A stretch of 64,000 nucleotides of DNA from Thermoproteota archaeon (GTDB lineage: Archaea > Thermoproteota > Thermoprotei_A > Sulfolobales > Ignisphaeraceae), in the NCBI GenBank assembly GCA_030550585.1, contig JAUQPB010000005.1, positions 1 to 64,000 on the forward strand. Reading direction: 5' to 3'. This document shows positions 1-27,029 of this stretch, one piece after another. The notes beneath the pieces were generated by a model that saw only the letters and a program-made list of their open reading frames with translations, had not been told where the DNA came from and ran no database searches. Positions within the stretch are counted from its first letter, which is position 1. The number at the start of each line of letters is the position of its first letter. Made by a program: the position numbers and the translations under genes.

Positions 1-194
1 TCTATCTCCGTCATCTCAGTCGATGTCAGAAACTCCCATAAGGGAGTAGAAAGAGTTAAGCTGCTTGGAAGCCTGTCCCTCACGGCTTGCAACGTAGTTT
101 GAAACTCCCATAAGGGAGTAGAAAGCTCCAGATCTTTCCACAATGGTTGCTTAAACAGCCAAGTCCTAAGAAACTCCCATAAGGGAGTAGAAAG
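1..194 (+). CRISPR. CRISPR array, trailer end (3 repeats)
   Basis: Three identical 25-nt repeats lie at 29-53, 101-125 and 170-194. Each begins GAAACTCC, has a CATAAGGG core and ends AGTAGAAAG. The two complete spacers are 47 and 44 nt, and a partial spacer precedes position 29. The inner part CTCC-CATAA-GGGAG is a short palindrome. The GAAAG 3' end matches the usual crRNA 5'-handle side of archaeal type I-A/III-B repeats, so transcription should run rightward. The leader and most of the array would then lie left of the window, and 194 is the trailer end. No cas genes occur in the window. Confidence 0.95.
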
Positions 195-6381: not shown

Positions 6382-6406
6382 CTTTCTACTCCATTATGAG
6401 AGTTTC
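6382..6406 (-). repeat. Solitary CRISPR-repeat-like element
   Basis: On the minus strand this 25-mer matches the array repeat at 29-194 in 23 of 25 positions. The two differences are G for C within the CATAAGGG-side palindrome half and one A-to-T change. No second copy flanks it. Directly downstream on the plus strand is a TATA-like GTATACTATATTC (6409-6421). The element therefore sits just upstream of a promoter, as does 24219-24243. Confidence 0.8.
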
Positions 6407-10337: not shown

Positions 10338-10465
10338 GCTTTTTACGAGTGTTGTTGCGGCAGCCGGTAGATTGGTGGGGTTGGACAGGCATCTAAAGTC
10401 TCTCAATTTTTAGGTGCAACACTTTTTATCTAAGCTCTACACAGCCCGGTTTTTGGTGTTGTGGC

Positions 10466-11938
10466 ATGGGTTTGAAGTTTGGCAAGGGGTTCAGATTCGG
10501 CTTTTCGACTGTTGGTGTTCAGCATGAGATGGGGTTGCCTGGCTCAGAGTTTGAGAGTGACTGGGTTTTGTGGCTGAGAGACTACGAGAATATTGTTGCC
10601 GGTGTTGTAAGTGGTGATAGGGCTGAGAACGGCCCTGGCTACTGGCATCTGTTTAGAGAAGACCATGCTAGGGCGGCCTCTATAGGCATGGACGCCGCCT
10701 GGATAACCATTGAGTGGGCTAGGATATTCCCCAAGCCGACATATGATGTGCAAGTGCCTGTAGAGAAAGACTCTGAGGGCATCAAAGCTGTGAACATAGA
10801 CTATGAGCACATTAGAAAGCTTGGGGCCTACGCAAATAGAGATGCTGTTGAACACTATAGAGAGGTACTCATGGACTGGCGTAGCAGAGGCGGCATGGTC
10901 GTTGGCTGCCTCTTCCACTGGTCTCTACCAACATGGCTCCACAACCCCGTGGCTGTAAGAAAGCTTGGTGTAGACAGAGCCCCCAGCGGCTGGGTCGATG
11001 AGAAGACGGTTGTGGAGTTCATAAAATTCGTGGCCTACATAGCCCACGAGCTGGATGAGGCTGTTGACATGTGGTACACAATGAACGAGCCCCTGGTGAT
11101 AGCGAGGCTTGGCTACATAGACATACACTCGGGCTTCCCACCAGGCTACCTAAGCCTAGAGGCATATGAAGCCGTTGTCAAGCATCTCATAGAAGCCCAT
11201 GCAAGAGCCTATGACACGATAAAGCTCTTCTCCAAAAAGCCCGTCGGGATTGTCGAGTCAGTCGCTTGGTACACGCCCAACACAGAAAACGATGGTGGTG
11301 CAGCTCAAAGAGCATTCGAAGACAATCTAGCTGTTCTAGACGCTGTGACTAGGGGTGTCTACCGCGGGCTTAGAAACTCCTTCGAGAGGGAGGATCTGAG
11401 GAACAGACTCGATTGGATAGGCCTAAACTACTACACCAGAACCGTTGTCAGAGCAGACACCAAAACGCTGTGGGGGTATAAAGCTGTACACGGTTACGGC
11501 TATCTATGCAACCCCGGCAGCATCTCCAGAGATGGGAGGCCTTGTAGCGACTTTGGCTGGGAGGTCTACCCCGAGGGGATATACCATGTGCTTAAAAGCC
11601 TCTATGAGAGGTACAAGCTCCCAGTCTACATAACAGAAAACGGTGTTGCAGACGCCGAAGACAGGCTCAGACCAAGGTTCATAGTCTCCCACTTATACTG
11701 GGCATACAAAGCACTATCCGAAGGAGTTGACTTGAGGGGGTACTTCCATTGGAACCTAATAGACAACCTAGAGTGGGCAAAGGGCTACAGCATGAGGTTT
11801 GGCCTATTCTACGTCGATATGGAGACCAAGAAGAGGTGTGCCAGGCCAAGCACCTACATATTCAAGGAGATTGCACAGCCAAAGGAAATCCCAGACGAAT
11901 TTCTACACCTCGTATACCCAGCAAAGACATGGCCATAG
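10466..11938 (+). CDS. lacS: GH1 beta-glycosidase (LacS type)
   Basis: A 490-residue family 1 glycoside hydrolase, close in length and layout to Sulfolobus LacS (489). It hydrolyses beta-galactosides and beta-glucosides by a retaining mechanism. The acid/base glutamate is E208 in YTMNEPLVIA and the nucleophile is E391 in VYITENGVAD. The N-terminal FGFSTVGVQHEMG and the C-terminal HWNLIDNLEWAKGY aglycone-site motif are present. No signal peptide is visible, so it should be cytoplasmic. It is a single gene with no sugar transporter nearby. Confidence 0.95.
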   Translation: MGLKFGKGFRFGFSTVGVQHEMGLPGSEFESDWVLWLRDYENIVAGVVSGDRAENGPGYWHLFREDHARAASIGMDAAWITIEWARIFPKPTYDVQVPVEKDSEGIKAVNIDYEHIRKLGAYANRDAVEHYREVLMDWRSRGGMVVGCLFHWSLPTWLHNPVAVRKLGVDRAPSGWVDEKTVVEFIKFVAYIAHELDEAVDMWYTMNEPLVIARLGYIDIHSGFPPGYLSLEAYEAVVKHLIEAHARAYDTIKLFSKKPVGIVESVAWYTPNTENDGGAAQRAFEDNLAVLDAVTRGVYRGLRNSFEREDLRNRLDWIGLNYYTRTVVRADTKTLWGYKAVHGYGYLCNPGSISRDGRPCSDFGWEVYPEGIYHVLKSLYERYKLPVYITENGVADAEDRLRPRFIVSHLYWAYKALSEGVDLRGYFHWNLIDNLEWAKGYSMRFGLFYVDMETKKRCARPSTYIFKEIAQPKEIPDEFLHLVYPAKTWP

Positions 11939-11958
11939 CGAAATAGGTGGAAGACAGC

Positions 11959-12873
11959 TTAGCTTTCCTTCTCCTTCTCCTCCTCTATTACATTTCCATA
12001 GACAGCTGCTATCCCCAGCTCCTCAGCTCTCTTCAAAGCATCTTCAAGTATGTCTACAGCGACAATTATCTTCCTATCTGGTCTCCTGCCAAGAACCTTC
12101 TCAAATATCTCGCATCTCGTCTCAAACCACTCGACATCGTCTGCATCAGCAAATGATTTAACCTCTATGAAGAAGACCTTGTCGTCGTGTACATATATAT
12201 CCATTTCAAGTTTGGCTCCCTTCCTATAGTACACGCCGTTAACATCCTTTATAGTGATCTTCTCAACCCTCTCACCCTCAACACCAAACGACTTAAGAAC
12301 ATCTTTATAGAGACTAAGAATAGTCTTCTCCAAGTCGATACCAAGTCTACGCCCAAGAGAGCCAACAGAAACCTCTAAACGCTTCAAAGACCTTGAATGC
12401 TCCTCCAACCTCTTCACAATCTCATTAAATTTCCTGTCATGCTCTTCAAGTCTAGCAAAGACTTCAGTAAATCTCTTGTTTATCTCCTCCCACCTCCTCT
12501 CCTCCAACTCAACAAACCTATTGAAATCCTCTCTCAACCTCTTCAACTCACTTTCAATAGCTTCGAACCTCTTGTATGCCTCCTCCCACCTCCTGTTATT
12601 CTCCTCCCAACGCCTATTATTTTCCTCCCACCTCTTATTATTCTCTTCCCATCTTCTGTTGTTCTCCTCCCACCTCTTCTCCTGCTCCTTAACAAAAACA
12701 AGAAAGTCTTCTCTAAGCCTCTTCAACTCCTCCTCATGCCTATCAAGCCTCTTCAAAACCTCCCCAAAGCCGATAAGACCGGCTATAGCATACCTAAACT
12801 CCTCATCCTCCTTCAAAAGCCTGAGAAACTCGCTCTTGAGGCTACTGTTATTGGTGGTGGATGCTACACACAT
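11959..12873 (-). CDS. Coiled-coil protein with PD-(D/E)XK-like C-terminus (DUF3782 type)
   Basis: A 304-residue protein typical of Sulfolobales and Desulfurococcales. A long charged coiled coil (residues about 30-190) includes five tandem RRWEENN heptads. The C-terminal 100 residues (KLEMDIYVHDDKVFFIEVKS, then VEWFETRCEIFEKVLGR) fit a restriction-endonuclease-like fold with a D...EVK active-site pattern. Function is unknown; nuclease activity is inferred only from the motif. It runs convergent with lacS. The start ATG follows a short leader. Confidence 0.75.
   Translation of the reverse strand: MCVASTTNNSSLKSEFLRLLKEDEEFRYAIAGLIGFGEVLKRLDRHEEELKRLREDFLVFVKEQEKRWEENNRRWEENNKRWEENNRRWEENNRRWEEAYKRFEAIESELKRLREDFNRFVELEERRWEEINKRFTEVFARLEEHDRKFNEIVKRLEEHSRSLKRLEVSVGSLGRRLGIDLEKTILSLYKDVLKSFGVEGERVEKITIKDVNGVYYRKGAKLEMDIYVHDDKVFFIEVKSFADADDVEWFETRCEIFEKVLGRRPDRKIIVAVDILEDALKRAEELGIAAVYGNVIEEEKEKES
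12580..12680 (-). repeat. 21-bp tandem repeat coding WEENN heptads
   Basis: About five copies of a 21-bp unit (plus strand CTCCTCCCACCTCTTATTATT and variants) encode RRWEENN or KRWEENN heptads of the coiled coil. The copies differ mostly at third codon positions. This indicates older expansion under protein-level selection rather than a fresh slip. Confidence 0.8.
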
Positions 12874-13077
12874 TTGATGCAGCCCAACAAACCTCTCAGC
12901 TTATAAAATGAGTTTGGCTTCCTAGAAAAATAAACATTTTGCTCGCCAGAGCTGTTGTCACGCTTATTAACTATGTACTGATAGGATAGTAATTGATGTT
13001 TTGGTTTTTCAGATGGTGTCTAGTAGCGGTTTGGTGCTTTATGGAAGGTTTATAGTGGATCCGACATTGCATTCGAG

Positions 13078-13747
13078 CTAGTGGTCTGGGGACTCCTCTC
13101 TCAGTATAGACCTTGGTCGCTCTCCGCTACAGTGTATGGGTGCTATCTTCTCCACGCCTAGATTTAGCAGCTGTTCAACTGTCTTTCTGCATTCATTGCT
13201 GGTTGTTCCCTCCATGTGGAATCCTCCAAAAACCAGATAGGGCTTTAATTTGAGGTCTCTAACAGCCTTTGCAACTATGTTTACAATACCTGGGTGACTG
13301 TATCCAGTAATTATAGCAAGACTATCTCTGACATTTATCGCCAGAGCCTGTTCCATGGGAGGGCCACAGAGCCTGCCCACCACAGCAACGCCAGGGGCTA
13401 TCCAAGCCGTTTTATCCACCTCAACAATATTTAGACCCCGAATCCCCACCTTCTTAGAGGCCCCTTCGGAACATAGACAGTTATCCCAGGCCTCGCCTCA
13501 GCCATGTAGCTCAAACCATTTGTGTGATCCCCATGCTCATGCAACACAACAGCAAATTCTATGCCCCTAGCGTCTACCCCCAAACTCCTCAAATTCCTCT
13601 CCAGAACACCTGGATCCGGACCCACATCAAACAAGAACCTGGAAGAAGGGTCTCAACAAATATGCTCAAACCCCATGCAACCTCTAGCCCAGAGCCCCCA
13701 CGGCTATCCACAACAACCACAATCCTACAGCTATCAGCTGAACCCAA
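13078..13747 (-). pseudogene. Frameshifted metallo-beta-lactamase-fold hydrolase
   Basis: Three frames add up to one MBL-fold enzyme. From TTG 13747 it reads CRIVVVVDSRGGSGLEVAWG. A shift near 13635-13650 leads to FDVGPDPGVLERNL and the metal motif HEHGDHTNGL. A shift near 13440-13450 leads to GRLCGPPMEQALAI, GYSHPGIVNIV and HCSGERPRS. The order matches the family around dihydropterin-type MBL phosphate synthases. All zinc ligands seem retained, so the damage is only two indels and recent, or they are sequencing errors. A Shine-Dalgarno-like GGAGG lies upstream. Confidence 0.75.
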
Positions 13748-13837
13748 TACCCCAACCTCCAATAACACAATTATTTATAGCGATGAATTTATAACTTTTT
13801 AATAGCATTGGCTCCTCCACCATCAAACTAGCGAATT

Positions 13838-14728
13838 CTATGCCCGTTGCCCCTGTCTCGTCTTTAGATATGTCTCAACAATTTTCAGTGTCTTAATTTG
13901 TGCGTCTCTAGCCCCCTGGACCTCCACATGGTTTACCCCACCCACCGCTAGAACCGCTCTTACACGATTCAAGTGGTTTTTTATGACCTTGTATATCTCG
14001 TCTAGGTCTTCGGTTATCAGCCCACCCCTCTCTGGGTCTACAAGTGTTATCCTCGCTCTATCCACTGGCTTCTCCATCTCCCACCTGTTCACAATTGTGT
14101 AGACTGCTATGGGGATTGCAAAAGCTTTTCTCAGTTTTATTAGCTGGCTGAACTCGTCTACTTCGTGTGCATAGTCTGTTACCACAACCAGTGCCGAGTT
14201 TTTCCTAACAATCGTTTTTAAGATGTTGACAACTCTGTCTATGCCTATAGAGCCCCCCACGCCCTTTTCCCTACACACAGTACTCTCGATAACCTTGATT
14301 GCTTCTCTGCCCCTCAAACCCCTATACACGTTTACATTGTGTGAGAAGATGATGAGGGTTATCCTGTCTGTGAATCTGTGGGACAGCTCCAGTAGGAGGG
14401 AGAGTGTATAGAGAGAGGCCGCCACCTTCTCCTCGTCCAGCATAGACTCTGTGAAGTCTGTTGCAAATACCACCTCCTTCATCTGCTCTACATGGAAAAC
14501 CTTTGTATATAGCTTGTAGTCTCCTGTGACCACATCTAAGGATCTTGCTGACAGTCTCCAGTCTATATACCTTATATCGTCTCCCTCTTGATACTCTCTA
14601 AAATCTGCATATTCGAGCCCTATCCCAAGATACCTAGACTTGCTGAGTCCCAGCTCCATTGATGTTGCATAGGATTGCCCAAGCTTTGAATATGCCTTCG
14701 CCGTTTTGCACAGTTCTCTACTTGACAA
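13838..14728 (-). CDS. DUF58 protein of MoxR module
   Basis: A 296-residue DUF58 protein. The family signature is clear: LEYADFREYQEGDDIRYIDW followed by RLSAR. A degenerate VWA-like fold follows, with the MIDAS-like loop reading DFTESM where true VWA domains have DxSxS. These proteins partner MoxR AAA+ ATPases, probably as chaperone adaptors or substrates in assembling surface or metal-containing complexes. Its start overlaps the end of the upstream gene by 11 nt, and that operon is divergent from moxR. Confidence 0.88.
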   Translation of the reverse strand: MSSRELCKTAKAYSKLGQSYATSMELGLSKSRYLGIGLEYADFREYQEGDDIRYIDWRLSARSLDVVTGDYKLYTKVFHVEQMKEVVFATDFTESMLDEEKVAASLYTLSLLLELSHRFTDRITLIIFSHNVNVYRGLRGREAIKVIESTVCREKGVGGSIGIDRVVNILKTIVRKNSALVVVTDYAHEVDEFSQLIKLRKAFAIPIAVYTIVNRWEMEKPVDRARITLVDPERGGLITEDLDEIYKVIKNHLNRVRAVLAVGGVNHVEVQGARDAQIKTLKIVETYLKTRQGQRA

Positions 14729-15605
14729 TAACTATGTCACCAACTTTGACTATGTCGCTGTAGGCTATATCCTCGAATTCTGCTGCCTCCTGCTCCTCCT
14801 CTACGAAGCTCTCCATAACCTTAGCTATCTTCTCCCAATCCCTAAACCCCTTCAGAATATTCTCAACCTCTCTAGCAACAGACAGATCCAGCTTGCTAAA
14901 CCTGTAGGGGTCTCTAAACTCCACAAGCCTCTCATAGACCTCTCTATACCCAAGCCTCTTTATGTTAGAGGTGAAGGCTATCCAGTTAACAACTCTCCTC
15001 CTACTCCTAACCCTGTAAACCCTAAAACCAACCGTCTTGGGCGCAACAACAACCTCTTTGCATATGCCCAGCAAACCCCTTGAAACACTGACAACAAGCT
15101 TATTCAAAATCTGCTCAATTCTATAAACAGACTTTTGCTGCTGGACTGGCAACCCCCGGAAAGAGGCTTCCCTAGGGGTTGAAAGAAGAACTATCTTGAC
15201 AGTAGAGTCGAAATCGTCTACAGAGACCCTCTTTATATCTATGAGCTGGATCTCGTCCAATGAGATAAAGCCCTTAAGCCAAACAACATCTTTTTCTGCA
15301 ACCCTATACGGTATGTCTAGGCCCTCTCTCCTAGCTATGGACACCAACACCTCGAGAGGCTCGTTTCCAGAGGCCAGGCCCCTACTCGATAAAATGTGCA
15401 CAAGTTTCTCCACATCAACAACAGGCTCGCTCACCCTAAAGGCGGTATATACAGAGAGCTTCACATCGTTATCCATAATCTGGGGCTCCTTGACATAGCC
15501 GTAGATAAGGGCCTCTGAGTCAACAACCATGGCATCTCTTATCTCGTCGAAGCTGTAGAACCTCCCCATGTGCTGCGACCACATAAACTTATTTCTAGAC
15601 ACCAA
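14718..15605 (-). CDS. Hypothetical protein of MoxR module
   Basis: A 295-residue soluble protein that I cannot assign. The first 45 residues (GRFYSFDEIRDAMVVDSEAL, then YGYVKEP) resemble a PRC-barrel-like beta domain. The middle is mixed alpha/beta. Near the end an acidic stretch (FVEEEQEAAEFEDIAYSD) precedes a final strand. It is translationally coupled to DUF58 and divergent from moxR, so a role with the MoxR ATPase is likely from context alone. TTG 15605 is the outermost start; ATG 15584 is also possible. Confidence 0.7.
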   Translation of the reverse strand: MVSRNKFMWSQHMGRFYSFDEIRDAMVVDSEALIYGYVKEPQIMDNDVKLSVYTAFRVSEPVVDVEKLVHILSSRGLASGNEPLEVLVSIARREGLDIPYRVAEKDVVWLKGFISLDEIQLIDIKRVSVDDFDSTVKIVLLSTPREASFRGLPVQQQKSVYRIEQILNKLVVSVSRGLLGICKEVVVAPKTVGFRVYRVRSRRRVVNWIAFTSNIKRLGYREVYERLVEFRDPYRFSKLDLSVAREVENILKGFRDWEKIAKVMESFVEEEQEAAEFEDIAYSDIVKVGDIVIVK

Positions 15606-15668
15606 AATCTAGGCTAGACACCAGAGATAAAAGCTTTGGGCTGGGATGGCAAAGACCAGGGTGTTTAT

Positions 15669-16739
15669 GTGCCCGCATCTAAAATAGATGTAGATGCCAT
15701 TAAGACAACAGTAGGGGAGATTCTGAAGCAGCTAGACAGAGCTGTTATAGGCTATGAGACTGAGAAGAGAATTGTCATAGCATCTCTTCTTGCAAACGGG
15801 CATGTCCTGCTCGAGGGTGTGCCCGGAATAGCTAAGACAACCCTAGTCAAAGCTCTTTCTAGAGCTCTTGGGCTTTCAGAGAAAAGGATTGTTGAAATCA
15901 GTGGCGTTCCATACAAGGGCTTCTCGAGGATACAGTTCACACCAGATTTGATGCCATCGGATATAACAGGGTCTCTAGTGTTCAACATAGCTCTGAAAGA
16001 TTTTGAGATTAGGTTCGGCCCCATCTTCACATACATTCTCTTAGCTGACGAGATCAACAGGGCTGTGCCCCGAACCCAATCAGCTCTTCTCCAAGCTATG
16101 CAGGAGAGAGAGGTGACTATAGGTGGCAGAACCTACCCACTCGAGATAAGGGGGCAGGGCAAGTTCTTCTTTGTGCTCGCAACGCAGAACCCTATTGAGC
16201 AAGAGGGCACCTACCCACTTCCAGAGGCACAGCTAGACAGATTCATGGTAAGGCTCTTCATGGGCTATCCGAAGAGCTTAGAGGAGGAGAGGAAGATATG
16301 CGAGCTCCACATGAACAGACTTACAGAGCCTGTTGAAGATGTTGAAAAGGTTGTGGAGCCTTCGTGGATCGTCGAAGCACAGGAGTACATAGCTGCAAAC
16401 ATTAAGGTGGATAGCAACGTTACAAACTATATAGTGAGGCTCGTCAGATCCACAAGACCAGAGACGTTCGACTCCATAAAAAAGTATTTTGAGTTTGGGG
16501 CAAGCCCAAGAGCATCGATAGCCCTTGTCAGGCTCTCTAAAGCAGTAGCGGCTATGAGGGGCTCTGAAGTGGTTGCCATAGAGGATGTCGACCAGATCGC
16601 TTTCCACGTCCTCAACCACAGGGTTATACCAAATCTGGAGACCGTTATGGAGGTTGGAGGGGGTTTTAGAGCAAGGATATCTGTTATAAGCGAGGGTATT
16701 GAGCTAGCGAAGAAGGTTGCTAGGGGTGGCAAGCCATGA
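15669..16739 (+). CDS. MoxR-family AAA+ ATPase
   Basis: An AAA+ ATPase of the MoxR branch, about 356 residues. Walker A is GVPGIAKTTL, Walker B is ILLADEINRA, sensor 1 is VLATQNPIEQEGTYPLPEAQ, and the lid domain contains FGASPRASIALVRL. MoxR proteins work with VWA-domain partners to remodel or mature proteins. The frame opens at TTG 15636. GTG 15669 fits better with a TATA-like AGATAAAAG at 15624-15632 and leaves room for the divergent promoter. It overlaps the next gene by 4 nt (ATGA), so it is co-translated with an ABC ATPase. Confidence 0.92.
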   Translation: MPASKIDVDAIKTTVGEILKQLDRAVIGYETEKRIVIASLLANGHVLLEGVPGIAKTTLVKALSRALGLSEKRIVEISGVPYKGFSRIQFTPDLMPSDITGSLVFNIALKDFEIRFGPIFTYILLADEINRAVPRTQSALLQAMQEREVTIGGRTYPLEIRGQGKFFFVLATQNPIEQEGTYPLPEAQLDRFMVRLFMGYPKSLEEERKICELHMNRLTEPVEDVEKVVEPSWIVEAQEYIAANIKVDSNVTNYIVRLVRSTRPETFDSIKKYFEFGASPRASIALVRLSKAVAAMRGSEVVAIEDVDQIAFHVLNHRVIPNLETVMEVGGGFRARISVISEGIELAKKVARGGKP

Positions 16740-17647
16740 CCATGATAGAGTTTAGAGAGGTTAGCAAAAGGTTTGGAAAGGTAGAGGCCCTGAAAAACGC
16801 CTCTTTCGAAATACCCGAGAACACTGTAACAGCTTTTCTGGGGCCCAACGGTGCGGGGAAAACAACGTCGATGAAGCTGATAATGGGCTTTCTAAAACCT
16901 TCGAAAGGTGCTGTGCTTGTCTGGGGGGAGGAGCCATGGAGAAACGAGAGTATTAGAAGCAGGATTGGATATCTTCCAGAGAAACCTGTGTACCCAATGG
17001 ATCTAACAGTCGAGGATTTTCTAAGTCACCTGGCAGGGCTGAGGAGATTGGGTAGAGCAGATGTCGAGAGGGTGTCAAGGCTCGTAGGACTGGAGAAGCT
17101 CATGGACAGGAAGATAAGAAGCCTGTCAAGAGGCTACCTCCAGAGAGTTGGAATAGCCCAGAGCCTCTTGGGAGAGCCAGAGCTGCTCATACTAGATGAG
17201 CCTACGGCTAACTTGGATCCAGCCGCTAGGAGAGAGATATTAGATGTTCTCAAGGTTCTGCACAAAGAGCTCAAAGTATCGATGATAATATCCTCTCACA
17301 TAATACCAGAGCTACAAGAGCTATCAAACTACGCTATCTTCATAGACAAGGGAACGGTTCTAGACTACGGGTATCTCAACGACCTCTGGAGGAAATACTC
17401 TGTAGAAACAGTCTTCACAATAGAGGCTACAGACATTGAAACAGTTGCTAAGCAGCTCATTGAAAAACCTTTTGTACACGCCATCAAGCGTGTCAGCAGT
17501 GGCACCCTCGAAGTCTCTATAGACCCCAGCCACTTTAAAGTATTTGAAGCCCTCCTCACAGAGATAAACCATAAGATAAGGCGCTACGAATTCAAAACAG
17601 CCAATCTAGGAGATCTCTATGAAAAGATTGTCAAGTCCAAGCCTTAG
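16736..17647 (+). CDS. ABC transporter ATP-binding protein
   Basis: A 303-residue ABC ATPase. Walker A is GPNGAGKTTSM, the signature is LSRGYLQRVG, Walker B is LLILDEPTANLDP and the H-loop is IISSHI. The C-terminal extension of about 80 residues is typical of exporter (ABC-2, NatA/CcmA-like) ATPases. It is coupled at its start to moxR by an ATGA overlap. Its end overlaps the permease gene by 29 nt. The substrate is unknown; context suggests the pump serves the same process as the MoxR/VWA complex. Confidence 0.92.
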   Translation: MTMIEFREVSKRFGKVEALKNASFEIPENTVTAFLGPNGAGKTTSMKLIMGFLKPSKGAVLVWGEEPWRNESIRSRIGYLPEKPVYPMDLTVEDFLSHLAGLRRLGRADVERVSRLVGLEKLMDRKIRSLSRGYLQRVGIAQSLLGEPELLILDEPTANLDPAARREILDVLKVLHKELKVSMIISSHIIPELQELSNYAIFIDKGTVLDYGYLNDLWRKYSVETVFTIEATDIETVAKQLIEKPFVHAIKRVSSGTLEVSIDPSHFKVFEALLTEINHKIRRYEFKTANLGDLYEKIVKSKP

Positions 17648-18446
17648 AAGAATATACGAGCAAACAGCATACATGGCCAACAGAAGAATGAGATCCTACT
17701 CCATAGCTGTGATAATAACCGATGTCATCACCGCTTTATTCATATTGATGCTTGGATGGCAAGCCCCAGTCACAGTATTGGCGCTGCTTCCTTTAGTCCC
17801 GTCAATCAGTATCTACAAGATTGTTATAGCAGCTCAAATATCTGGCATTGCAAGAGAGATCAAATCAGGGGAGGTGCAGCTCTACCTAGCCCACACATTA
17901 ACTAGAGTAGAGTATTTGTTAAGTACATTTCTATTAGCTGGTATAACACCTGCTCTCCTCCTAGTATCGACATGTAGTGTGGTGATAGCCATAGTCGCTC
18001 CAAATCTGCTTTATACAATAGGTGAGTACATTCTCTACATCTTTGTAGACCTCCTAATCTTCTCAGCAATTGTAGTATTAGTGGCTAGCCATGGTTACGA
18101 AGGCACTACAATCATTTTGGGTGTTTTCCTAGGGCTTTTCATATGGATTGCTACAAGCATTCTCCTTTTCTTTTACACATACTCAGGTTTGTCTTATACA
18201 TACTCAAGTAATGTCTCTCCACTTAGCCCCCCACTACTATATCTAGTATATTTGTCGTTCTCTATCTGCGCATTGCTATCTCCCTTTACATACCGTGTAC
18301 TCTATATCGCCTATACACAGACCTACAAACCCTCGCCACCACCCATTCCCCCACCAACTCCACAAACTATTATGTTGCTTGCCTTGCTATTGACTATAGC
18401 TTTGTTAGGACTGGCTTTAAGAGAAATTAAAGTTAGAGATATATAG
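17619..18446 (+). CDS. ABC-2-like permease subunit
   Basis: A 275-residue integral membrane protein with about six hydrophobic segments. Two are near residues 28-70, then about 105-130, 135-160, 165-190 and the C-terminal end. A proline-rich loop (PSPPPIPPPTP) precedes the last helix. No family motif stands out, but position, overlap with the ABC ATPase and topology make it the membrane partner. Codon use near the end is A/C-rich. Confidence 0.75.
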   Translation: MKRLSSPSLRRIYEQTAYMANRRMRSYSIAVIITDVITALFILMLGWQAPVTVLALLPLVPSISIYKIVIAAQISGIAREIKSGEVQLYLAHTLTRVEYLLSTFLLAGITPALLLVSTCSVVIAIVAPNLLYTIGEYILYIFVDLLIFSAIVVLVASHGYEGTTIILGVFLGLFIWIATSILLFFYTYSGLSYTYSSNVSPLSPPLLYLVYLSFSICALLSPFTYRVLYIAYTQTYKPSPPPIPPPTPQTIMLLALLLTIALLGLALREIKVRDI

Positions 18447-18465
18447 GTTTTGTAGGTGGTGAGCT

Positions 18466-19464
18466 GTGATAAAGGTTGTGTTGTTTGCACTTGCACTATC
18501 AACAGCTATTATCCTAGCACTTCTTGCGGTAGCATATTTTCATCAAATAACCATTGTATATAGAGACGACAGCAATGGTCTTGTATTTAGAGAAGATCCG
18601 AAGATAATTGGAGAAACAGATGATAAGATCTGCTACATCCACATATATGATATAGCGCAACGGGGCTCTTCTCAAATACTACCTACACAGTATCCAGAGC
18701 TATACCGCTTGAATATAAACTCAATAAATATCTCGATATCATACGACATTTGGATAGGGATAAACGCCTCGATAAAAAGCGCTTCGACGAACCGTACAGT
18801 ACTAACTGCGGGAACATTATTACTTAATAGTATTAAAGATGCCTCTGTGAGGGTTTTTGAGGTTAATAAGAGTAGTAGTATAGAGCTTGAGAGGATTATT
18901 AGAGAGGAGCTTCGTCGCTCACAATACTCTGACTACATACCTTTAGTTGTTGGCGAGGGCTATAGAAGGGTTATTGACTACGTTGAGCAAGTAGCAATTA
19001 AAGAAATGATGTGTAGCCCCTCACGGTTGTTCACAGGGATGATATCGAATTTAACTGTTTATAGATTTCAATGGTTATGCCCAACTTCGGATCTTCCTCA
19101 CATAGGCAATGTGCATGTAGTCGAAATGTGCCTTAATAGAGGGGCTCTCATATCAATTTTACTTGGAGGCTTCATGAGAATAGACAAGGTTATTGATTTA
19201 GTTGCAAACGCAACGAGGTATAACCTCTCAGGGGATGCAATTAAAGCTATTGTTTATTCCCTCACTTTACCATTTGTACTTGACTCTATTATGGCTATGA
19301 ACTACAATATTGTGCTTAGCCCACAGGCAGTGCATATTTGGAGGGCTCTAGCCTTTCTACTGGCGTTTGTCAGCGGGATATTCCTTCACTATAGGCTTAG
19401 ACCTGAAGAATATAGTGGTTTTATAAGATTTTTCAGAAGGTTACGCCGGAGAATCGGTGGATAG
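18466..19464 (+). CDS. Membrane-anchored extracytoplasmic protein
   Basis: A 332-residue protein with one N-terminal membrane helix (residues about 3-24), a large outside domain with several N-x-S/T sites and four or more cysteines, and a second helix near 290-310. A basic cytoplasmic tail (RFFRRLRRRIGG) follows. I recognise no family. It is the last gene of the moxR-ABC operon (GTG start, 19 nt after the permease). It runs 32 nt into the convergent VWA gene. It may be the ligand-binding or scaffold part of the transporter. Confidence 0.7.
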   Translation: MIKVVLFALALSTAIILALLAVAYFHQITIVYRDDSNGLVFREDPKIIGETDDKICYIHIYDIAQRGSSQILPTQYPELYRLNINSINISISYDIWIGINASIKSASTNRTVLTAGTLLLNSIKDASVRVFEVNKSSSIELERIIREELRRSQYSDYIPLVVGEGYRRVIDYVEQVAIKEMMCSPSRLFTGMISNLTVYRFQWLCPTSDLPHIGNVHVVEMCLNRGALISILLGGFMRIDKVIDLVANATRYNLSGDAIKAIVYSLTLPFVLDSIMAMNYNIVLSPQAVHIWRALAFLLAFVSGIFLHYRLRPEEYSGFIRFFRRLRRRIGG

Positions 19465-20407
19465 TTACTCTATAGACTATGTAGATGGCGAGGGCCGCCA
19501 CGAGTATTGGTGGTAGAAGAGGTGTGTACACATCAACTGTTTTCACAGCCTTTGCACTGACCTCTACCCTCTGAATAGCTTGCGAGGCCTGCTCCAAGGC
19601 TTTGCCGAGAGCCTCTGGTAGCTTGTCAACTGTTTCTGCAACGTATGGCTCTCCCCCGGTGCTATCCGCTATAAGCCTCATCTCCTCTATACCCTCTTGT
19701 TCGGAGCCTATGAACACAGTGTATATTGGTATTCCAAGTCTTTTGAAATCATCTAATAGCGGTCTATAGTCATTTGTATCCCCTGGGAGACCATCTGAGA
19801 CGAAGACTATTGAGGCAGAAACATTGTATTCTCTATATGGTTTCAACCAGTTTAGTGCTGATCTCAGGGGGTAGCTATACATTGTACCACCATTCGCCTC
19901 AGCCTTCTCTACAGCCTCTACAATCTTGCTCCTATCGCCTATAGGTGCAACAGCTTGTTTAACTCTGTCAGCGAACTCTATGAAACCAACATCTATGCTT
20001 TGGGGGAGTCTCTTAACAACGTCTACTATAACCCTCTTGGCAGTCTCTATCTTTGTGCCACCCATACTGCCGGAGGTGTCCAATATTATTATGAGGGGCG
20101 GCCTCACATTAAATGATAGCTCGGAAACCTCTTTAGACTCTACATAGATCTGCTTCTGTGTGACAATATAGGGCTCGGCTAGAGCTAGTGAGATAAGGGC
20201 TACAAGGGCGAGTTTCAGGGCTAGGGTCGCGATTCTAAATCTCGTTCTCTTTGGGGCTAGCCTCTTAGAGGCTATAGAGGCGAGGGAGTGTCTGTATCTA
20301 TAATTCTTTGAGTATAGCTTTGGGAAGAGCATATGCAGTAAGATAACAATTGTTGTGGATATGGCAAAGGCAGCTATGAATAGATAGGGGTTTTTGAGTG
20401 TGATCAC
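19433..20407 (-). CDS. VWA-domain membrane protein (BatA/BatB-like)
   Basis: A 324-residue protein. Two membrane helices come first (about 8-27 and 60-82), then a von Willebrand A domain with MIDAS loop DTSGSMGG, conserved T in ANGGTMYSYP, and VFVSDGLPGD. A C-terminal helix sits near 298-316. This is the layout of BatA/BatB proteins linked with MoxR in bacteria. Its GTG start overlaps the stop of the upstream VWA gene by 4 nt. It probably binds metal and a partner outside or in the membrane. Confidence 0.88.
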   Translation of the reverse strand: MITLKNPYLFIAAFAISTTIVILLHMLFPKLYSKNYRYRHSLASIASKRLAPKRTRFRIATLALKLALVALISLALAEPYIVTQKQIYVESKEVSELSFNVRPPLIIILDTSGSMGGTKIETAKRVIVDVVKRLPQSIDVGFIEFADRVKQAVAPIGDRSKIVEAVEKAEANGGTMYSYPLRSALNWLKPYREYNVSASIVFVSDGLPGDTNDYRPLLDDFKRLGIPIYTVFIGSEQEGIEEMRLIADSTGGEPYVAETVDKLPEALGKALEQASQAIQRVEVSAKAVKTVDVYTPLLPPILVAALAIYIVYRVTIHRFSGVTF

Positions 20408-21348
20408 AACCCCTCAGCCAGGCTAAGTATTGTGAGAGGCAGTGCCGCCAGGAGTATGTAGAGCTGTATCGAATAGTCCTTTACAGGGGTTTCGATGTAA
20501 AGCTGGCCAGAGGCTTTAAAGGCTCCGTACCTAGCTTCGACGTAGAGCTTCTCAGCTATGTAGTTGAGAGCCTCTACCTCGTTTGTTAGCATCCCAACCC
20601 TTATCACTTGAACCCCATACCTTTTACATGTCTCTTCAAAGCTAGATGCCCTAGGATCGCTACCGACTAGTATAGCGAGCAGAGGGATGTTGCCAGCTAC
20701 AACAGCTTTTACAGCATCTTCTACAGGCGAGCCATAGTTTGCCGCGCCATCTGTTACAACAAGTAGTGCTGTTGGTATTGGAGATGTCTTTGCTTTTGAG
20801 AATCCAAAGTATATGGCATCGCCAATAGCAGAGTACTTTTCAAGTTCTAATTTGCTGAGAACAGAAGAGCAGGTTTCGAGAGAGCTTGTGTTTGTAGCTA
20901 TGCAGAGGGGCTTCACATTGCTGCTAAACCCATACACCTCTACAGCATCTCTCCTCTCAACAGCTTTTCTAGCAATCCTCAGAACTAGGTCAACTGCGCT
21001 TCCAATTCTAGTTGGATATGCATCTGTTTTCCCCATACTCGTGGATATATCTAGTAGAATAATGATTTTTGCATTGGTTATATTTACACTGAGTATGTTG
21101 TCCATGGTCACAGGGGTGTAGGTGTATGTCACTGTATAGGGCTGTGCAACAGCAACTGCAAGAAGCATGGGAGCAATAAACTTTGCTATCAACAGAGCTC
21201 TTGCAACCTTCCACCCACCCAATCCACCAAGCTTCGATGAAAGCTCGGAAGATCTCCTCCTACTTCTGTAGAGCAATAAAGTAAGTACTGTGGCTATGGC
21301 CGGCACAAGAACGAGTGCCAGGGGGTGGTCAAACCCTATGCTAGTCAT
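20404..21348 (-). CDS. VWA-domain membrane protein (BatA/BatB-like)
   Basis: About 314 residues from ATG 21348 (MTSIGFDHPLAL). Helices lie near 8-24 and 55-72. The VWA domain has MIDAS loop DISTSMGK and VVTDGAANYG, and there is a final helix near the C-terminus. A longer frame opens at 21483 but would bury the coupling ATG. At 21348 the ATG overlaps the upstream stop (ATGACTAG). It forms a pair with the next VWA gene, as BatA and BatB do. Confidence 0.87.
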   Translation of the reverse strand: MTSIGFDHPLALVLVPAIATVLTLLLYRSRRRSSELSSKLGGLGGWKVARALLIAKFIAPMLLAVAVAQPYTVTYTYTPVTMDNILSVNITNAKIIILLDISTSMGKTDAYPTRIGSAVDLVLRIARKAVERRDAVEVYGFSSNVKPLCIATNTSSLETCSSVLSKLELEKYSAIGDAIYFGFSKAKTSPIPTALLVVTDGAANYGSPVEDAVKAVVAGNIPLLAILVGSDPRASSFEETCKRYGVQVIRVGMLTNEVEALNYIAEKLYVEARYGAFKASGQLYIETPVKDYSIQLYILLAALPLTILSLAEGL

Positions 21349-22267
21349 CCGATTCAGGGGGGACATAGCCGGCTCCACCACCAACACCTTGGCTACTACC
21401 GCTAGAGCTTCCCTGTTCATTGCCCTCCTGTCCCTGGCCCGGCATGCCCTGCTGGATAAGGGATAGAAGCTTGTTTCTAGCATTCATAACCTCTAGCGAT
21501 AGAGGCCCCGAAACCCCTACATCCTCCAATTCCTTTTTCAGGCCGGCCAGGCGTTGCTGGTCCCCAACTCTCTCACCTTTGCACAGAGCCTCTACAACAT
21601 CTCTATAGCTTTTGGCCATCTGCATAACATTGTACGCAGCTTGCAGAGACTTGAAAACATTTTCGAATCTTCTAAGAGATGCGTTTACTACCCCAACATG
21701 GTTCTCCGCCAAATAGCTGCTGTTGACATTTCTAAGAATATCTATAGCCGAGGCCGTAGAGCCAATCGCCCCAACCACTTTATCCTCGACCAAGCCGAAC
21801 TTCTCAAGAGCCTCATCAACTCTGCAAAGAGCCAAAAGCTCGAGAGACTCCCTCAGAGTTGTAACAGAGGAATTCAAATCTCTATAAGCTTCAACACCTT
21901 TAACAGAGGCGCTAGCCACATATAGATAGCTTTTTGCAGCACCAACAAAGAAACTGTTGTCAGAACCATAAACAGCAGATACATTACGCAAATACCTCTC
22001 CAACCTCATCCTAACACCATAAACATCGCTGAAATCGTATCCAGAAACACCAAAACCTTTGAGAACACCCTCAAGAGCAATAGACGACTTGTTGAGATAT
22101 TGAACAGCTCTAACATAATCCTCCAAAACATTTATATGAGGAGAGCTTACAACACGAGGCCAAAAACTATATATTATAAAGGCGATAGAGAGAAGCAAAA
22201 TGATAAGAGCAGCCAACGAATACCTATCACGCAAAAACCTCTGACTCCAAGCCACATTAACCTCCAT
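21341..22267 (-). CDS. Membrane-anchored helical protein of VWA operon
   Basis: A 308-residue protein with an N-terminal helix (residues about 17-37). A mostly alpha-helical outside domain with many N-x-S/T sites follows. The tail is Gly/Ser/Gln-rich (MPGQGQEGNEQGSSSGSSQG). No family is recognised. It is first in the operon with two VWA proteins, which suggests it is the counterpart of the TPR (BatC/BatE-like) subunit in bacterial systems; that is inference. Confidence 0.75.
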   Translation of the reverse strand: MEVNVAWSQRFLRDRYSLAALIILLLSIAFIIYSFWPRVVSSPHINVLEDYVRAVQYLNKSSIALEGVLKGFGVSGYDFSDVYGVRMRLERYLRNVSAVYGSDNSFFVGAAKSYLYVASASVKGVEAYRDLNSSVTTLRESLELLALCRVDEALEKFGLVEDKVVGAIGSTASAIDILRNVNSSYLAENHVGVVNASLRRFENVFKSLQAAYNVMQMAKSYRDVVEALCKGERVGDQQRLAGLKKELEDVGVSGPLSLEVMNARNKLLSLIQQGMPGQGQEGNEQGSSSGSSQGVGGGAGYVPPESDD

Positions 22268-22411
22268 AAATCAAAACCTCTACAAAACAAGTATTCTCAA
22301 TAAGAGAATAAAAATCTTTGCTATGCAAAAACCAAGCAAAATCCTCTATGCTCATGGGAGCTTCTAGATAAATTTGCTCGCTGGGCTGGTGTAAATTGTG
22401 TTATGGAAAAT

Positions 22412-24114
22412 TTATTCCTCTATATAGTAGACATAATTAGTATTCAGCTTATATACCTCTATGTAGGCTCCAGGCCATATGTCAGAGCCGCTAAAAACTC
22501 TTTCTCTTGTCTGATCCTGGTTTATGTATGTATACCATGGGTCTAAGAAGAATGTTGTTCCTGCTGACCAAACCCTATAGCCAATTATATCATATTTTTC
22601 AACTATACTGAAGTCTGTATCGAATATGTAGATTCTATGGCGACTGCCAAATTCTGTGTCGGTTGCGAAGGATGCAGCAAACATGATTTGGCCTTGTGAA
22701 TCTATTACCGGATATATTGTTGGATTTTCGTGTCCCTTCTCAAATATTGTTTTGACATATATGAATTCTCTTGATGTTGGACCGTTTATTCTCCATAGTA
22801 TTGTTCCTGCTGAGAAACTTGATGTGAGTGCGTACCATGTCCCATTAAATTTGAAGATGGCTATGTCGTAGTGTCCCCATCTGCCACTAGGTGGAGCGTT
22901 AACCAGCTTTACATCTTCGTACAAGCCTCTAAATCGAGATTATCGCTGAACACAACCTTGGCTATTCTATGTAGCTCTCCTTGGTATGTTGCTCCCCAGT
23001 TCATTATATAGCCGTGGATTTTGCCGTCGACCCACTTAAACAATACTCCTTGACCTGTGTAAGCAGGGTTTCCACGGATTATGATGAGCTTTACCGGCTT
23101 GAAGTTTATGAAGTCCTTCGATCTGAGTATTAGCAGGCCTAGTGGTTGCCGGTAGAACCCTGCTGTTGCAAAGAACAACATATATCCTTCAGAGTCTTTT
23201 AATATGGATCGCGGATCATATTTTCCATTACTCCAATCGAATACGGGTCTAAGATCTCTCATACCCGCGCCAGCTAGCTGGTAAACTGCGAGATTCTCTA
23301 TGACTACTGATGCACTGCAGATCCTCAGCAGAATTCTGGTATCATATACCCAGAGCTGAGGTGTTGAAAGCCGTGATAAAAGAATCCAGTCTTCATCAGT
23401 TTCACGTTTTGCAAATATCTCAACGGCTCCTGTTGTGTAGGCAAATAGAAGCTCAAGTCTCTCTGTATTTATTGGAATAGATATCTAATTCAAAGCCCAG
23501 CGACCCTCAAGGTATACCGTAGTGTCTCTATCGAAACCAATTTTTACACTTACATAGTGTTTATCTGAACGAGGAGACCAAAGAGACTCTAAAATCTCAT
23601 TCTATACATTAGGTATGGTCAGAACAAGTCTATAGACCTTGTATCTGTCTATCTTAACTTCATTGTTATATGCATATACACATACATTCTCAGCCATTAT
23701 TTCCAGCCCTCTATATGTCAACCTATATGTGTCATTAACAATCCACCTCTTATCCATAGTCTGCAAATCCTCTTGATAATAGATAACATCATCAAAGTAT
23801 ATAAATGGCATTACCACAGACAACCTCTCCCCAAGCTCCAAAAAAGGAGGTTGAGGTAGCTGATAAGTGGTAACTGTTCTGAACTCTGTAACAGTTTTTA
23901 CCTCTGTAGCCGTTGCAGTAACCGTTGCTAACATTGATGTAGTAACTGTTTTGATATCTGTATTTGTAATCGTATTTGTAACTGTAATTGTATTAACCTC
24001 TGTCTCAACATTGATCGTAAACCTGGCAATGCTATAACCAATTAAGCTAGAAACCAGCATTACTAAAACTATTATAATGACATATTGTCTATTAAAGTGC
24101 ATCACATCTTTCAC
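22412..24114 (-). pseudogene. Broken anchored surface protein with propeller-like domain
   Basis: One gene of about 567 codons with three lesions. The N-terminus has a membrane helix and a Thr/Val-rich stalk (TITVTNTITNTDIKTVTTS), typical of archaeal surface proteins. The frame is cut by in-frame TAG codons at 23602-23604 and near 23486-23488. Sequence between and after them still reads well (GFDRDTTVYLEGRWALN; TERLELLFAYTTGAVEIF). A frameshift near 22915-22925 joins the last part (APPSGRWGHYDIAIFKFNG). The body resembles five-bladed glycosidase propellers (GH43-like) with repeated SKDF and HENPTIYP-type turns. Other window genes end with TAG, so recoding is unlikely. Confidence 0.75.
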
Positions 24115-24218
24115 TTGTAATTATAAATAAAATGCGAGAAATTCTAATAAATTTGTTATACTACCCTTATGACATTTATGTAAAGATATCCAATGCATTT
24201 ATACTGCAACAGTTGTAG

Positions 24219-24243
24219 AAAATTCTCATAAGGGTGTAGAAAT
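24219..24243 (+). repeat. Solitary CRISPR-repeat-like element upstream of SPFH operon
   Basis: This 25-mer matches the array repeat in 20 of 25 positions. It includes the whole CATAAGGG core (24227-24234) and GTAGAAA at the 3' side. It is single and in direct orientation. It ends 2-3 nt before a TATA box (GTTTTTATATTGC, 24244-24256), so it would lie about 35-60 bp upstream of transcription start. This is the same placement as the element at 6382-6406. Confidence 0.7.
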
Positions 24244-24287
24244 GTTTTTATATTGCTGTGTGGTTTTATGTTTTTTGGGTTGTGCGC

Positions 24288-24788
24288 ATGGTTAGGCGTG
24301 ATGCGTTGTTGGAGAAGCTCCTCAATGTTTTGCCTGGTTTTCGTGGCTATAGAAAAAAGGAGTATGTGAGGGAGGATGATAGACTTGTTAGAGAGTATAT
24401 AGTGAGGGTGTTGACCGAGGCTATAAGGGATTTGGAGGAGGCTATTGCGAATATTGCTATATATGATTTTGGTTCGGCTGAGCTTTTCGATAGTGTTTTG
24501 AGGGATCTTAGAACTGTTGCTGATAGGATTAGGTGGGCTGAGCATGGTTATGCCCCTCATTTCAACATTGTTAAGATTCAGGAGGAGGATTTGAATAGGA
24601 TGAGAGAGGTTGATCTATCTATTGTTGAGAATGCTGAGAAGATTAGAGAGTTTGCGGCGAGTGTCAAGAGGGATTCTATGCTTAGAAACCCTGTTAGAGA
24701 GAGGGTTCAGGAGCTGGTCAAGCTCATAGATGATGTGAGGGCTAAGCTTGTGGAAAGAGAGAAGATTGTTAGAGGCTGGGTGCAGTAG
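24288..24788 (+). CDS. Helical hypothetical protein, first gene of SPFH cluster
   Basis: A 166-residue, highly charged and apparently all-helical protein (for example YIVRVLTEAIRDLEEAI and VRERVQELVKLIDDVRAKLV). No membrane segment or known motif is visible. I choose ATG 24288 (MVRRDALLEKLL); the frame opens at GTG 24258, which is too close to the TATA box. About 50 bp separates it from the SPFH gene. Its helical form would suit an ESCRT- or phage-shock-like membrane partner, but no homology is claimed. Confidence 0.7.
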   Translation: MVRRDALLEKLLNVLPGFRGYRKKEYVREDDRLVREYIVRVLTEAIRDLEEAIANIAIYDFGSAELFDSVLRDLRTVADRIRWAEHGYAPHFNIVKIQEEDLNRMREVDLSIVENAEKIREFAASVKRDSMLRNPVRERVQELVKLIDDVRAKLVEREKIVRGWVQ

Positions 24789-24839: not shown

Positions 24840-25913
24840 GTGCATGGTTTGGCTCTCAACAAGATTGGAAAGGTCATAGGCAAGGCAGGTAGCAAGATAA
24901 GTGGTTTCCAGCCTAAACTAATCGAGTGGAAGGATGCCACACCAAATGATATTGTTTGGAGATACCCGGATGAGGTAATTCCGTGGGGCTCCACGATCGT
25001 GGTTAAGGAGTGGGAGAGAGCGGTTTTCTACAGAGATGGCAAGGTCTATGGTGTTCTGGGCCCCGGCAGGCATGTTCTCGATACTCAGAATGTTCCGTTT
25101 CTACAAGGACTTGTAGAGGGGTTTTATGGGGAGAGCATATTTAGAGCCATAATCATATTTGTTAATATCAATAGGTTGCAGGGTAAGTTTGGTGGTAGAA
25201 GCCAAACCGTTGAGCTCATACCAGTCAATTTCTATGGGGTCTACTACTATAGGGTTGCAGACCCAGCTCTATTTGTTAACAAGGTTGTTGGACCTGACTC
25301 TAGATTCACTAGAGAGGAGCTTGACGAGTATATAAGGAGCTACTTCCTGAACAACCTCATGGCATTCATAAGCCAGTCTAGCATAAAAGACCTCTATATG
25401 AAGGCTGCTGAAGCTAGCAAGAGGGCTGCTATGGTACTTAGAAAGCCTTTTGATGAGATAGGGCTCATGCTTGAGGATGTCCAGTTCGAGGGTATAGATG
25501 TCCCGCCAGAGTATAGAGAGAGGATGTTCTGGTTGATGCAGGGAACATCAGCAGCCTATCTAGTACAGCAGGAGACTGCTAGAAAGTTTGCTGAAGCGAT
25601 TGAGAAGACGCAGGCTGGGGGAGCAGCCTTCGGCGCAGGGGTAGTGGCCATTCCGTGGGCTCTACAGCCGCCCCCACCCCAGGCACAACAACAGCCAGCT
25701 ACACAAGCCCCAGCTGCAGCAACTGCAGGTGTTGCTACAACAGCTCCTCAACAGGGTTATGTGGCTAGATGCCCATACTGCGGCCAGGCACCTGTGCCAC
25801 AAGGAGCCAGGTTCTGCCCATTCTGCGGAAAGCAAGTGAAGTGGTGTCCCAACGGACACATAGCTCCGGCTGAAGCCAACTTCTGCCCTGTCTGTGGCAG
25901 CAAGCTTGTATAG
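24840..25913 (+). CDS. SPFH/band-7 protein with C-terminal zinc ribbons
   Basis: A 357-residue protein. An N-terminal SPFH (stomatin/prohibitin-like) domain covers about residues 35-250 (WGSTIVVKEWERAVFYRDGK, then YGVLGPGRH). A Pro/Ala/Gln-rich linker follows. Zinc-ribbon units form the end (CPYCGQAP, CPFCGK, CPNGH, CPVCGSKL). This layout resembles the band-7/virion-core-like family of bacteria and archaea, thought to scaffold membrane domains. There is no clear membrane helix, so it may associate peripherally. It lies in tandem with two more zinc-ribbon genes. Confidence 0.88.
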   Translation: MHGLALNKIGKVIGKAGSKISGFQPKLIEWKDATPNDIVWRYPDEVIPWGSTIVVKEWERAVFYRDGKVYGVLGPGRHVLDTQNVPFLQGLVEGFYGESIFRAIIIFVNINRLQGKFGGRSQTVELIPVNFYGVYYYRVADPALFVNKVVGPDSRFTREELDEYIRSYFLNNLMAFISQSSIKDLYMKAAEASKRAAMVLRKPFDEIGLMLEDVQFEGIDVPPEYRERMFWLMQGTSAAYLVQQETARKFAEAIEKTQAGGAAFGAGVVAIPWALQPPPPQAQQQPATQAPAAATAGVATTAPQQGYVARCPYCGQAPVPQGARFCPFCGKQVKWCPNGHIAPAEANFCPVCGSKLV

Positions 25914-25925: not shown

Positions 25926-27029
25926 ATGTCTCAAAGCTTTAGATGCAGCAATTGTGGGGCTCCTCTAGATGTTTCTCCAGAAACAATAGCTGTTGTGTGT
26001 AGCTACTGCGGCTATCTCAACTGGATTAGAGAGGATCTCAAAGAGGAGATTCTCGTTGTAAAGCCATTGGGCGAGAGAGAAATCCTTAAAAAGATAGAGG
26101 CTTTTGGCTCTCGCAAAAAGCTTGGCCAAGTCTTTAAAGAGACCAACCTATCCAAACTCACGTTAGTGCTAGTACCATTCTACCTCGTTGATGTGTCTGC
26201 ACAAGCCGATTACAGTGCCAATGTTGTTGTCAGTGTTAGGAAGTGTCGGAGAGAAAAGAATGAGGAGAGGTGTTGGACAGAATCTAGAAACGTGTTTGTA
26301 AAAGGGGTTTACGGACCATACAACGATATAGTGCCTGTTGTTGGTAGAAGGGGGAGCAACGTCTTATCTGTTAGAGTACTAGGGAAAAAATATGCTGTTA
26401 GCAGGGTAGAGGCGGTTCCTCTGGGCGAGGCCAAGCTAGATAAAGATGTGTGGAGGGGTATACTATCGATAGAAGTAGATAAGAAGACTGCCATGGACAT
26501 AGCCCTCAACGAACATCTGAATAGATTGAGAAGCATCGTTACAGAGGTTATAAAGAGAGAGGCGGAGAGCAGGGTCATGATGAGAGGAGAGCATGTAGTG
26601 GGTTCAACAATTCTATGGAAAAGAATAACGCCAATAAACGTGAAGGCAGCTACATCCAAACCAACCCTATTGCCAATGTACACAGCTGTCTACATGTATG
26701 GAGGCAGCATCTACAGGGTAATCCTCTGTGGATGGGATGGAGAGGCAATAGCTTTTGAAAGGCCTATGAGAATGTCTGAGAGAATTGCCTGGGGAACACT
26801 ATCAGCTATAGCCTCGGGGGCGTTGGGCGGCTTATCGGGTATGCTAATAATGGCCAACCCCATAGCCTCTTTACCACTTCTGGTGATAGGTGGGGTGGCC
26901 TCCTGGTACTGCATGAGAAAGGCTTTGACACCTGTTAAAACAACTGTTGTAGAGCCCAGCTTCAGAAACCTGCTTAATCTTGAGCTTGCAATCCATGGGA
27001 TCTCCAGTATATTGGGTGAAATCCTCTGA
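25926..27029 (+). CDS. Zinc-ribbon membrane protein
   Basis: A 367-residue protein. The N-terminal zinc ribbon CSNCGAPLDV...VCSYCGYLNW (residues about 7-36) precedes a long alpha/beta region with no recognised family. A hydrophobic hairpin follows near 285-330 (LSAIASGALGGLSGMLIMA and PLLVIGGVASWY). It starts 12 nt after the SPFH gene and its stop overlaps the next gene. It is clearly paralogous in layout to that gene (ribbon, body, glycine-rich hydrophobic pair). It probably works with the SPFH protein at the membrane. Confidence 0.8.
   Translation: MSQSFRCSNCGAPLDVSPETIAVVCSYCGYLNWIREDLKEEILVVKPLGEREILKKIEAFGSRKKLGQVFKETNLSKLTLVLVPFYLVDVSAQADYSANVVVSVRKCRREKNEERCWTESRNVFVKGVYGPYNDIVPVVGRRGSNVLSVRVLGKKYAVSRVEAVPLGEAKLDKDVWRGILSIEVDKKTAMDIALNEHLNRLRSIVTEVIKREAESRVMMRGEHVVGSTILWKRITPINVKAATSKPTLLPMYTAVYMYGGSIYRVILCGWDGEAIAFERPMRMSERIAWGTLSAIASGALGGLSGMLIMANPIASLPLLVIGGVASWYCMRKALTPVKTTVVEPSFRNLLNLELAIHGISSILGEIL

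What the first reader, a model, noticed from the sequence alone, without database searches (positions are those of the whole stretch)
24219..24243. Second solo CRISPR-like repeat at the promoter of the SPFH/zinc-ribbon cluster
Twenty of 25 bases match the array repeat, including the whole CATAAGGG core. The element ends 2-3 nt before the TATA box of the cluster. Distance to TATA equals that at 6382-6406. Two independent solo repeats with the same placement suggest a regulatory use, by a Cas complex or a repeat-binding protein, instead of chance.
Basis: partly seen in the sequence, partly recalled or inferred. Interest (0 to 1): 0.65.

Follow-up and report, generated by a model that had tools for sequence, protein, structure and literature searches.

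The report
Decayed solo CRISPR repeats between promoters
In this heat-loving archaeon (Ignisphaera), the short stretch in front of a membrane-protein gene cluster is a real but worn copy of the cell's CRISPR repeat, one of an inverted pair, and it looks more like a scar of past CRISPR-array loss or genome rearrangement than a shared gene switch.

Summary
In detail: 24219-24243 matches the array repeat at 20/25, contains CATAAGGG, and ends 1 nt before the TATA box of the SPFH/zinc-ribbon cluster. The "second site with the same placement" does not hold: 6382-6406 is a good solo repeat (23/25), but it lies on the opposite strand relative to its TATA-like sequence, between two convergent genes.

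New facts: (1) A second, inverted copy of TCATAAGGGT lies 63 bp away, so the element is an inverted pair between divergent genes. (2) In the closest species (G005) the homologous inverted copy is 21/25 repeat-like, so the locus truly carries repeat-derived elements. (3) A rearrangement breakpoint between the two species falls at the edge of the inverted copy. (4) In G005 another solo repeat stands exactly where this genome has a 42-repeat array.

Six other congeners have the gene cluster without the element. It changes about as fast as its flanks, and repeat cores near TATA boxes are not enriched, so a regulon is not supported.

Best reading: decaying solo CRISPR repeats at a rearrangement site, one now abutting a promoter. 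A repeat-binding-protein operator (as for Sulfolobus Cbp1 non-canonical sites) is possible but less likely. Modest interest.

The parts
24219..24243 (+). repeat-like element 'arm2', 20/25 to the CRISPR repeat, 3' end abutting the SPFH-cluster TATA box
24155..24179 (-). inverted partner 'arm1' (core TCATAAGGGT at 24163-24172); 13/25 here, but its G005 counterpart is 21/25; centre-to-centre distance to arm2 63 bp
24245..24253 (+). TATA box TTTTTATAT of the SPFH cluster; the preceding AAATG (24240-24244) is the BRE position
   Evidence: identical in G005
24196..24204 (+). upstream TATA-like CATTTATAC, conserved in G005; part of a 16-nt direct repeat with the main TATA region, spacing 49
24163..24166 (.). 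synteny breakpoint relative to G005: left side colinear with G005:C5 up to 19233, right side joins inverted at G005:C5:126574 and downwards
24288..24788 (+). first gene of the cluster (166 aa, LIMLP_15305-like by a weak NCBIfam match)
24840..25913 (+). SPFH/Band_7 protein with C-terminal zinc ribbon
25926..27029 (+). 367-aa protein with weak N-terminal zinc-ribbon match
23602..24114 (-). divergent gene: 170-aa protein with an apparent membrane anchor; ortholog in G005 79% identical but no longer next to the SPFH cluster
6382..6406 (-). other solo repeat, 23/25, in a convergent intergenic region; ortholog at G005:C5:3406 (-)
29..194 (+). trailer end of the CRISPR array (three repeats; contig starts here)

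Best explanation
The element is a decayed solitary CRISPR repeat, one of an inverted pair left between two divergent genes by past loss or rearrangement of CRISPR arrays. SHOWN: in this genus a single repeat can stand where a relative has a whole array; the pair is repeat-derived; a rearrangement breakpoint lies at the edge of one member. INFERRED: the pair arose by array loss or repeat-linked rearrangement, and it is now drifting. The repeat's A-rich 3' end (GTAGAAA) doubles as the BRE just upstream of the TATA box, so that end is kept by ordinary promoter constraint, not because a Cas or repeat-binding protein reads it.
For: Repeat origin: 20/25 here, and 21/25 at the homologous spot in G005 with different letters retained; 0 of 20,000 shuffles match either within its intergenic stretch. 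Scar mechanism in the same genus: at G005:C1:559147 the left flank aligns to the window genome's C3 up to 33201 (before the leader), and the right flank begins exactly in the last repeat (C3:36407) of a 42-repeat array. Rearrangement: synteny with G005 is colinear to 24163, then joins inverted from 24166. Drift: arm2 identity between the species 84%, flanks 77% and 89%. No conservation: absent from six other SPFH clusters. No regulon: no other repeat-like site with <=6 mismatches in 1.28 Mb apart from 6382, and the core near TATA is not enriched. BRE overlap: A-rich positions -3 to -6 before TTTTATA are the rule in this genome.
Against: An inverted pair, each member pointing its 3' end towards one divergent gene and, in G005, each followed by a T-run (TTTTTATA, TTTTTAAG), is a tidy arrangement for debris. 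CATAAG is invariant in all five homologous copies while most other columns vary, as a bound core would be, though the copies are related and few. No array has been seen at this exact locus in any relative.
Confidence: 0.5

Rival explanations
1. A non-canonical operator for a CRISPR-repeat-binding transcription factor (Cbp1/Cbp2 type): the protein that coats arrays also binds these two repeat-like sites and, by occluding the BRE/TATA, represses the divergent promoters.
For: In Sulfolobales, Cbp1 binds 92 non-CRISPR sites in S. solfataricus P2 with a repeat-like 21-bp motif, and start sites within 50 bp of such sites are more often up after cbp1 deletion (PMC10883916). Cbp1/Cbp2 are not linked to CRISPR loci and are thought to have other transcriptional roles (PMC4390879). 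Arm2 abuts the TATA box; the arms are symmetric; 63 bp is six helical turns.
Against: Cbp1's strongest contacts are six bases near the repeat's 3' end. That end is degraded here: GTAGAAAT in arm2, GTATAACA in arm1, GTAAAAAT in G005 arm2. Not conserved in six congeners. Whether this genome encodes a Cbp homolog was not tested (no query sequence at hand).
Confidence: 0.2
2. An operator pair for an unrelated transcription factor whose site is about TCATAAGGGT; the resemblance to the CRISPR repeat is partly coincidental.
For: TCATAAGGGT occurs three times in 455 kb and two of these are the inverted pair 63 bp apart. In G005's SPFH-side arm1 the CATAAG core stays while the right half of the repeat is gone.
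Against: Does not explain the 21/25 match to the full repeat, both ends included, in G005. The G005 arms do not keep TCATAAGGGT exactly (CCATAAGTGG, TCATAAGAAT, CCATAAGGGA). No other promoter shows the motif.
Confidence: 0.17
3. Chance: an AT-rich promoter with a BRE that happens to resemble the repeat.
For: About 0.17 sites with <=5 mismatches are expected by chance in the 1.28 Mb scanned.
Against: The homologous intergenic stretch of G005 holds a 21/25 site (0 of 20,000 shuffles), and the core is repeated inverted in the same 173-bp gap.
Confidence: 0.08
4. A solitary repeat unit that is transcribed and acts as a crRNA mimic or Cas6 substrate (Racr-like, CreA-like).
For: A second TATA-like sequence (24196-24204) lies about 23 nt upstream of the element and is conserved in G005.
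Against: The main TATA lies downstream of the element, so the cluster's own transcript would not contain it. The stem is broken (TTCTCATAAGGGTG). No virus or plasmid context was noted around it. Cas6 was not detected in this genome at E<=0.01 with TIGR01877.
Confidence: 0.05

Closest known systems
[quoted passage not shown]
   Same: single repeat-like site outside arrays, some near start sites, crenarchaeal host
   Different: here the 3'-terminal core of the repeat is degraded; binding and a Cbp protein were not tested; the site is one of an inverted pair; several strong P2 sites are in IS110-family transposons
Solitary repeat units / RNA anti-CRISPRs (PMC10651486)
   Same: isolated intergenic CRISPR repeat near promoter-like sequence
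   Different: chromosomal setting with no virus or plasmid genes noted nearby, degenerate stem, element lies before the TATA box and would not be transcribed from it
Residual repeat of a deleted CRISPR array
   Same: seen in this genus at G005:C1:559147, where one repeat stands in place of the 42-repeat array of the window genome
   Different: no array has been seen at the 24219 locus itself in any relative, and two inverted repeats remain, not one

Membership tests
Solo copy of the host CRISPR repeat | similarity to the host's own repeat beyond chance, outside an array | tested here: met
   20/25 here, 21/25 at the homologous G005 site, no array within 200 bp
Relic of a lost array | array with leader present at the same locus in a relative | tested here: not met
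   no array at this locus in the genus members examined; met for another solo, G005:C1:559147 versus G000:C3:33419-36431
Cbp1/Cbp2 non-canonical site | repeat-like motif including the 6-bp core near the repeat's 3' end | tested here: inconclusive
   GTAGAAAT retained in G000 arm2 (last base changed), lost in arm1 and in G005 arm2
Cbp1/Cbp2 non-canonical site | genome encodes a Cbp homolog that binds the site | not tested
   no Cbp sequence was available as a query; binding needs an experiment
   present in 2 of 8 genus members with the cluster
Solitary repeat unit / Racr | carried by a mobile element and transcribed | tested here: inconclusive
   neighbouring genes with a family match are cellular-type and the element precedes the cluster's TATA box; transcription not testable here

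The most novel reading that the evidence does not exclude
A CRISPR repeat, dispersed as an inverted pair, has been taken over as the core operator of a divergent promoter for a membrane-stress-type (SPFH) gene cluster, so that array-binding chromatin proteins also set expression of a host gene.
Probability: 0.15. Interest if true: 0.6.

Novelty: new member of a known kind. Interest (0 to 1): 0.35.

Why it matters
It shows how to tell real but decayed solo CRISPR repeats from chance by using a close relative. It gives a clean case of a single repeat standing where a relative has a whole array, and it places repeat-derived DNA at a chromosome rearrangement breakpoint. If the operator reading were right, it would link CRISPR array chromatin to host gene control outside Sulfolobus.

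Tried and rejected
Two solos with the same placement: rejected, the 6382 site is inverted relative to its TATA-like sequence and convergently placed. A genus-wide regulon of repeat core plus TATA: rejected, no enrichment over the reversed pattern. A conserved element of SPFH promoters: rejected beyond the closest species pair. A structured RNA known to Rfam: none in the window. The reciprocal junction in the window genome (C6, beside a gene that looks like glmS) shows no repeat-like element, so a simple two-repeat inversion is not proven. Literature searches for degenerate repeats at promoters and for CRISPR-linked inversions gave no direct precedent.

Full report
WHAT IS THERE. The window is the start of contig C1 of a 1.76-Mb archaeal genome. 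Contigs of its same-genus genomes match records titled Ignisphaera sp., so the genus is Ignisphaera. The genome carries 137 sites within 3 mismatches of GAAACTCCCATAAGGGAGTAGAAAG, nearly all in arrays. The site at 24219-24243 is AAAATTCTCATAAGGGTGTAGAAAT, 20/25, on the same strand as the cluster it precedes; the TATA box TTTTTATAT starts at 24245. The cluster encodes a 166-aa protein, an SPFH/Band_7 protein with a C-terminal zinc ribbon, and a further protein with a weak zinc-ribbon match.

IS IT CHANCE? In 1.28 Mb of this genome only two non-array sites have six or fewer mismatches: 6382 (2) and 24219 (5). Shuffled repeats give 0.17 sites with <=5 mismatches in the same DNA. On that count alone 24219 would not be convincing. 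Two further facts make it so. First, TCATAAGGGT occurs only three times in 455 kb outside arrays, and two of these lie 63 bp apart, inverted, in this one intergenic region. Second, in the closest species (G005, first protein 92% identical) the inverted member is GAAACTGCCATAAGTGGATAGAAAG, 21/25 to the repeat; none of 20,000 shuffled repeats reaches that in the stretch. The locus therefore holds two inverted, repeat-derived elements.

THE SECOND SITE. 6382-6406 is a better repeat (23/25), but it lies on the minus strand, between convergent genes, with its 5' end facing the TATA-like sequence at 6410. It has an ortholog at G005:C5:3406 in near-identical flanks. It is a solo repeat but not a promoter element, so the argument from equal placement falls.

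CONSERVATION. The SPFH cluster was found in eight genus members. Only G000 and G005 have the element; in the six others no repeat-like core is seen upstream, although at least five of them carry repeats of this family. Between G000 and G005 the element is 84% identical, the DNA between the arms 77%, and the TATA/leader stretch 89%: no excess conservation. CATAAG is nevertheless invariant in all five homologous copies of the two genomes; these copies are few and related. Searching the genus for CATAAGG followed by a TATA-like sequence gave 31 sites against 51 for the reversed pattern, so there is no sign of a regulon.

REARRANGEMENT. Window 11720-24163 is colinear with G005:C5 6808-19233, and window 24166 onwards matches G005:C5 from 126574 downwards. 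The breakpoint thus falls at the edge of the inverted core (24164-24171). In G005 a block of about 26 bp that contains the left part of the repeat is present at both separated ends. The reciprocal junction in the window genome shows no repeat, and G005's contig ends close to the site, so the exact event is not resolved.

WHERE SOLOS COME FROM. At G005:C1:559147 a single repeat stands in place of the 42-repeat array of the window genome: the left flank matches up to C3:33201, before the leader, and the right flank starts exactly in the last repeat at C3:36407. The simplest reading is loss of leader plus array, leaving one terminal repeat; read the other way, the array was gained at that spot. 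Other solos exist at G009:C1:873091 and 1846636 and at G006:C3:85937.

HOW IT MOST LIKELY WORKS. Shown: repeat-derived inverted pair, breakpoint, no wider conservation. Inferred: the pair is debris of array loss or repeat-linked rearrangement. Its A-rich 3' end serves as the BRE of the SPFH promoter, in keeping with the A-rich positions -3 to -6 seen before TTTTATA in this genome. The main rival is a repeat-binding protein: Sulfolobus Cbp1 binds repeat-like sites outside arrays, and nearby start sites respond to its deletion (PMC10883916). Its key contacts are at the repeat's 3' end, which is degraded here, and no Cbp homolog was sought, for want of a query sequence.

VERDICT. A real, non-chance, repeat-derived element whose regulatory use is unproven and not supported by comparison beyond one species pair. 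New member of a known kind; modest interest.

SIDE FINDING. In another congener (G006:C8) five repeat-like sequences with <=5 mismatches lie in frame inside genes of one cas locus (cas6 twice, cas3', and a further gene of the same operon twice), against 0.0015 expected. In cas6 they encode an N-terminal extension and a loop that are absent or shorter in relatives. This may deserve its own study, for instance as Cas6 sites in the cas mRNA.

Noticed in passing
L097 (G006:C8:1-20000) 5333-5357, 5503-5527, 6868-6892, 8951-8975, 9154-9178 (-): Five CRISPR-repeat-like sequences (1 to 5 mismatches) lie in frame within genes of a cas locus (cas6, cas3', a further gene of the operon); 0.0015 expected. 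In cas6 they encode an N-terminal extension and a variable loop; possible Cas6 sites in the cas mRNA.
   Followed up: partly
L065 (G005:C1:555000-562000) around 4148; G000:C3:33202-36431: One solo repeat in G005 stands exactly where the window genome has a leader and a 42-repeat array: array loss leaving the terminal repeat, or array gain.
   Followed up: yes
window 24163-24166: Breakpoint of a large rearrangement relative to the closest species lies at the edge of an inverted repeat-like core.
   Followed up: partly
L097 12208-12232 (+): A repeat-like sequence (6 mismatches) just downstream of a TATA-like stretch, at the start of an ORF that looks like biotin-protein ligase (birA).
   Followed up: no
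window 24192-24207 and 24241-24256: 16-nt direct repeat (81%) that contains two TATA-like boxes 49 bp apart upstream of the SPFH cluster, both kept in G005.
   Followed up: no
L046 (G000:C4:770001-790000) about 3000-12000: Run of genes on one strand whose sequences (several RAMP-like, one of 941 aa) look like a type III CRISPR effector operon near an array; judged by eye only. No Cas6 was found in this genome with TIGR01877 at E<=0.01.
   Followed up: no
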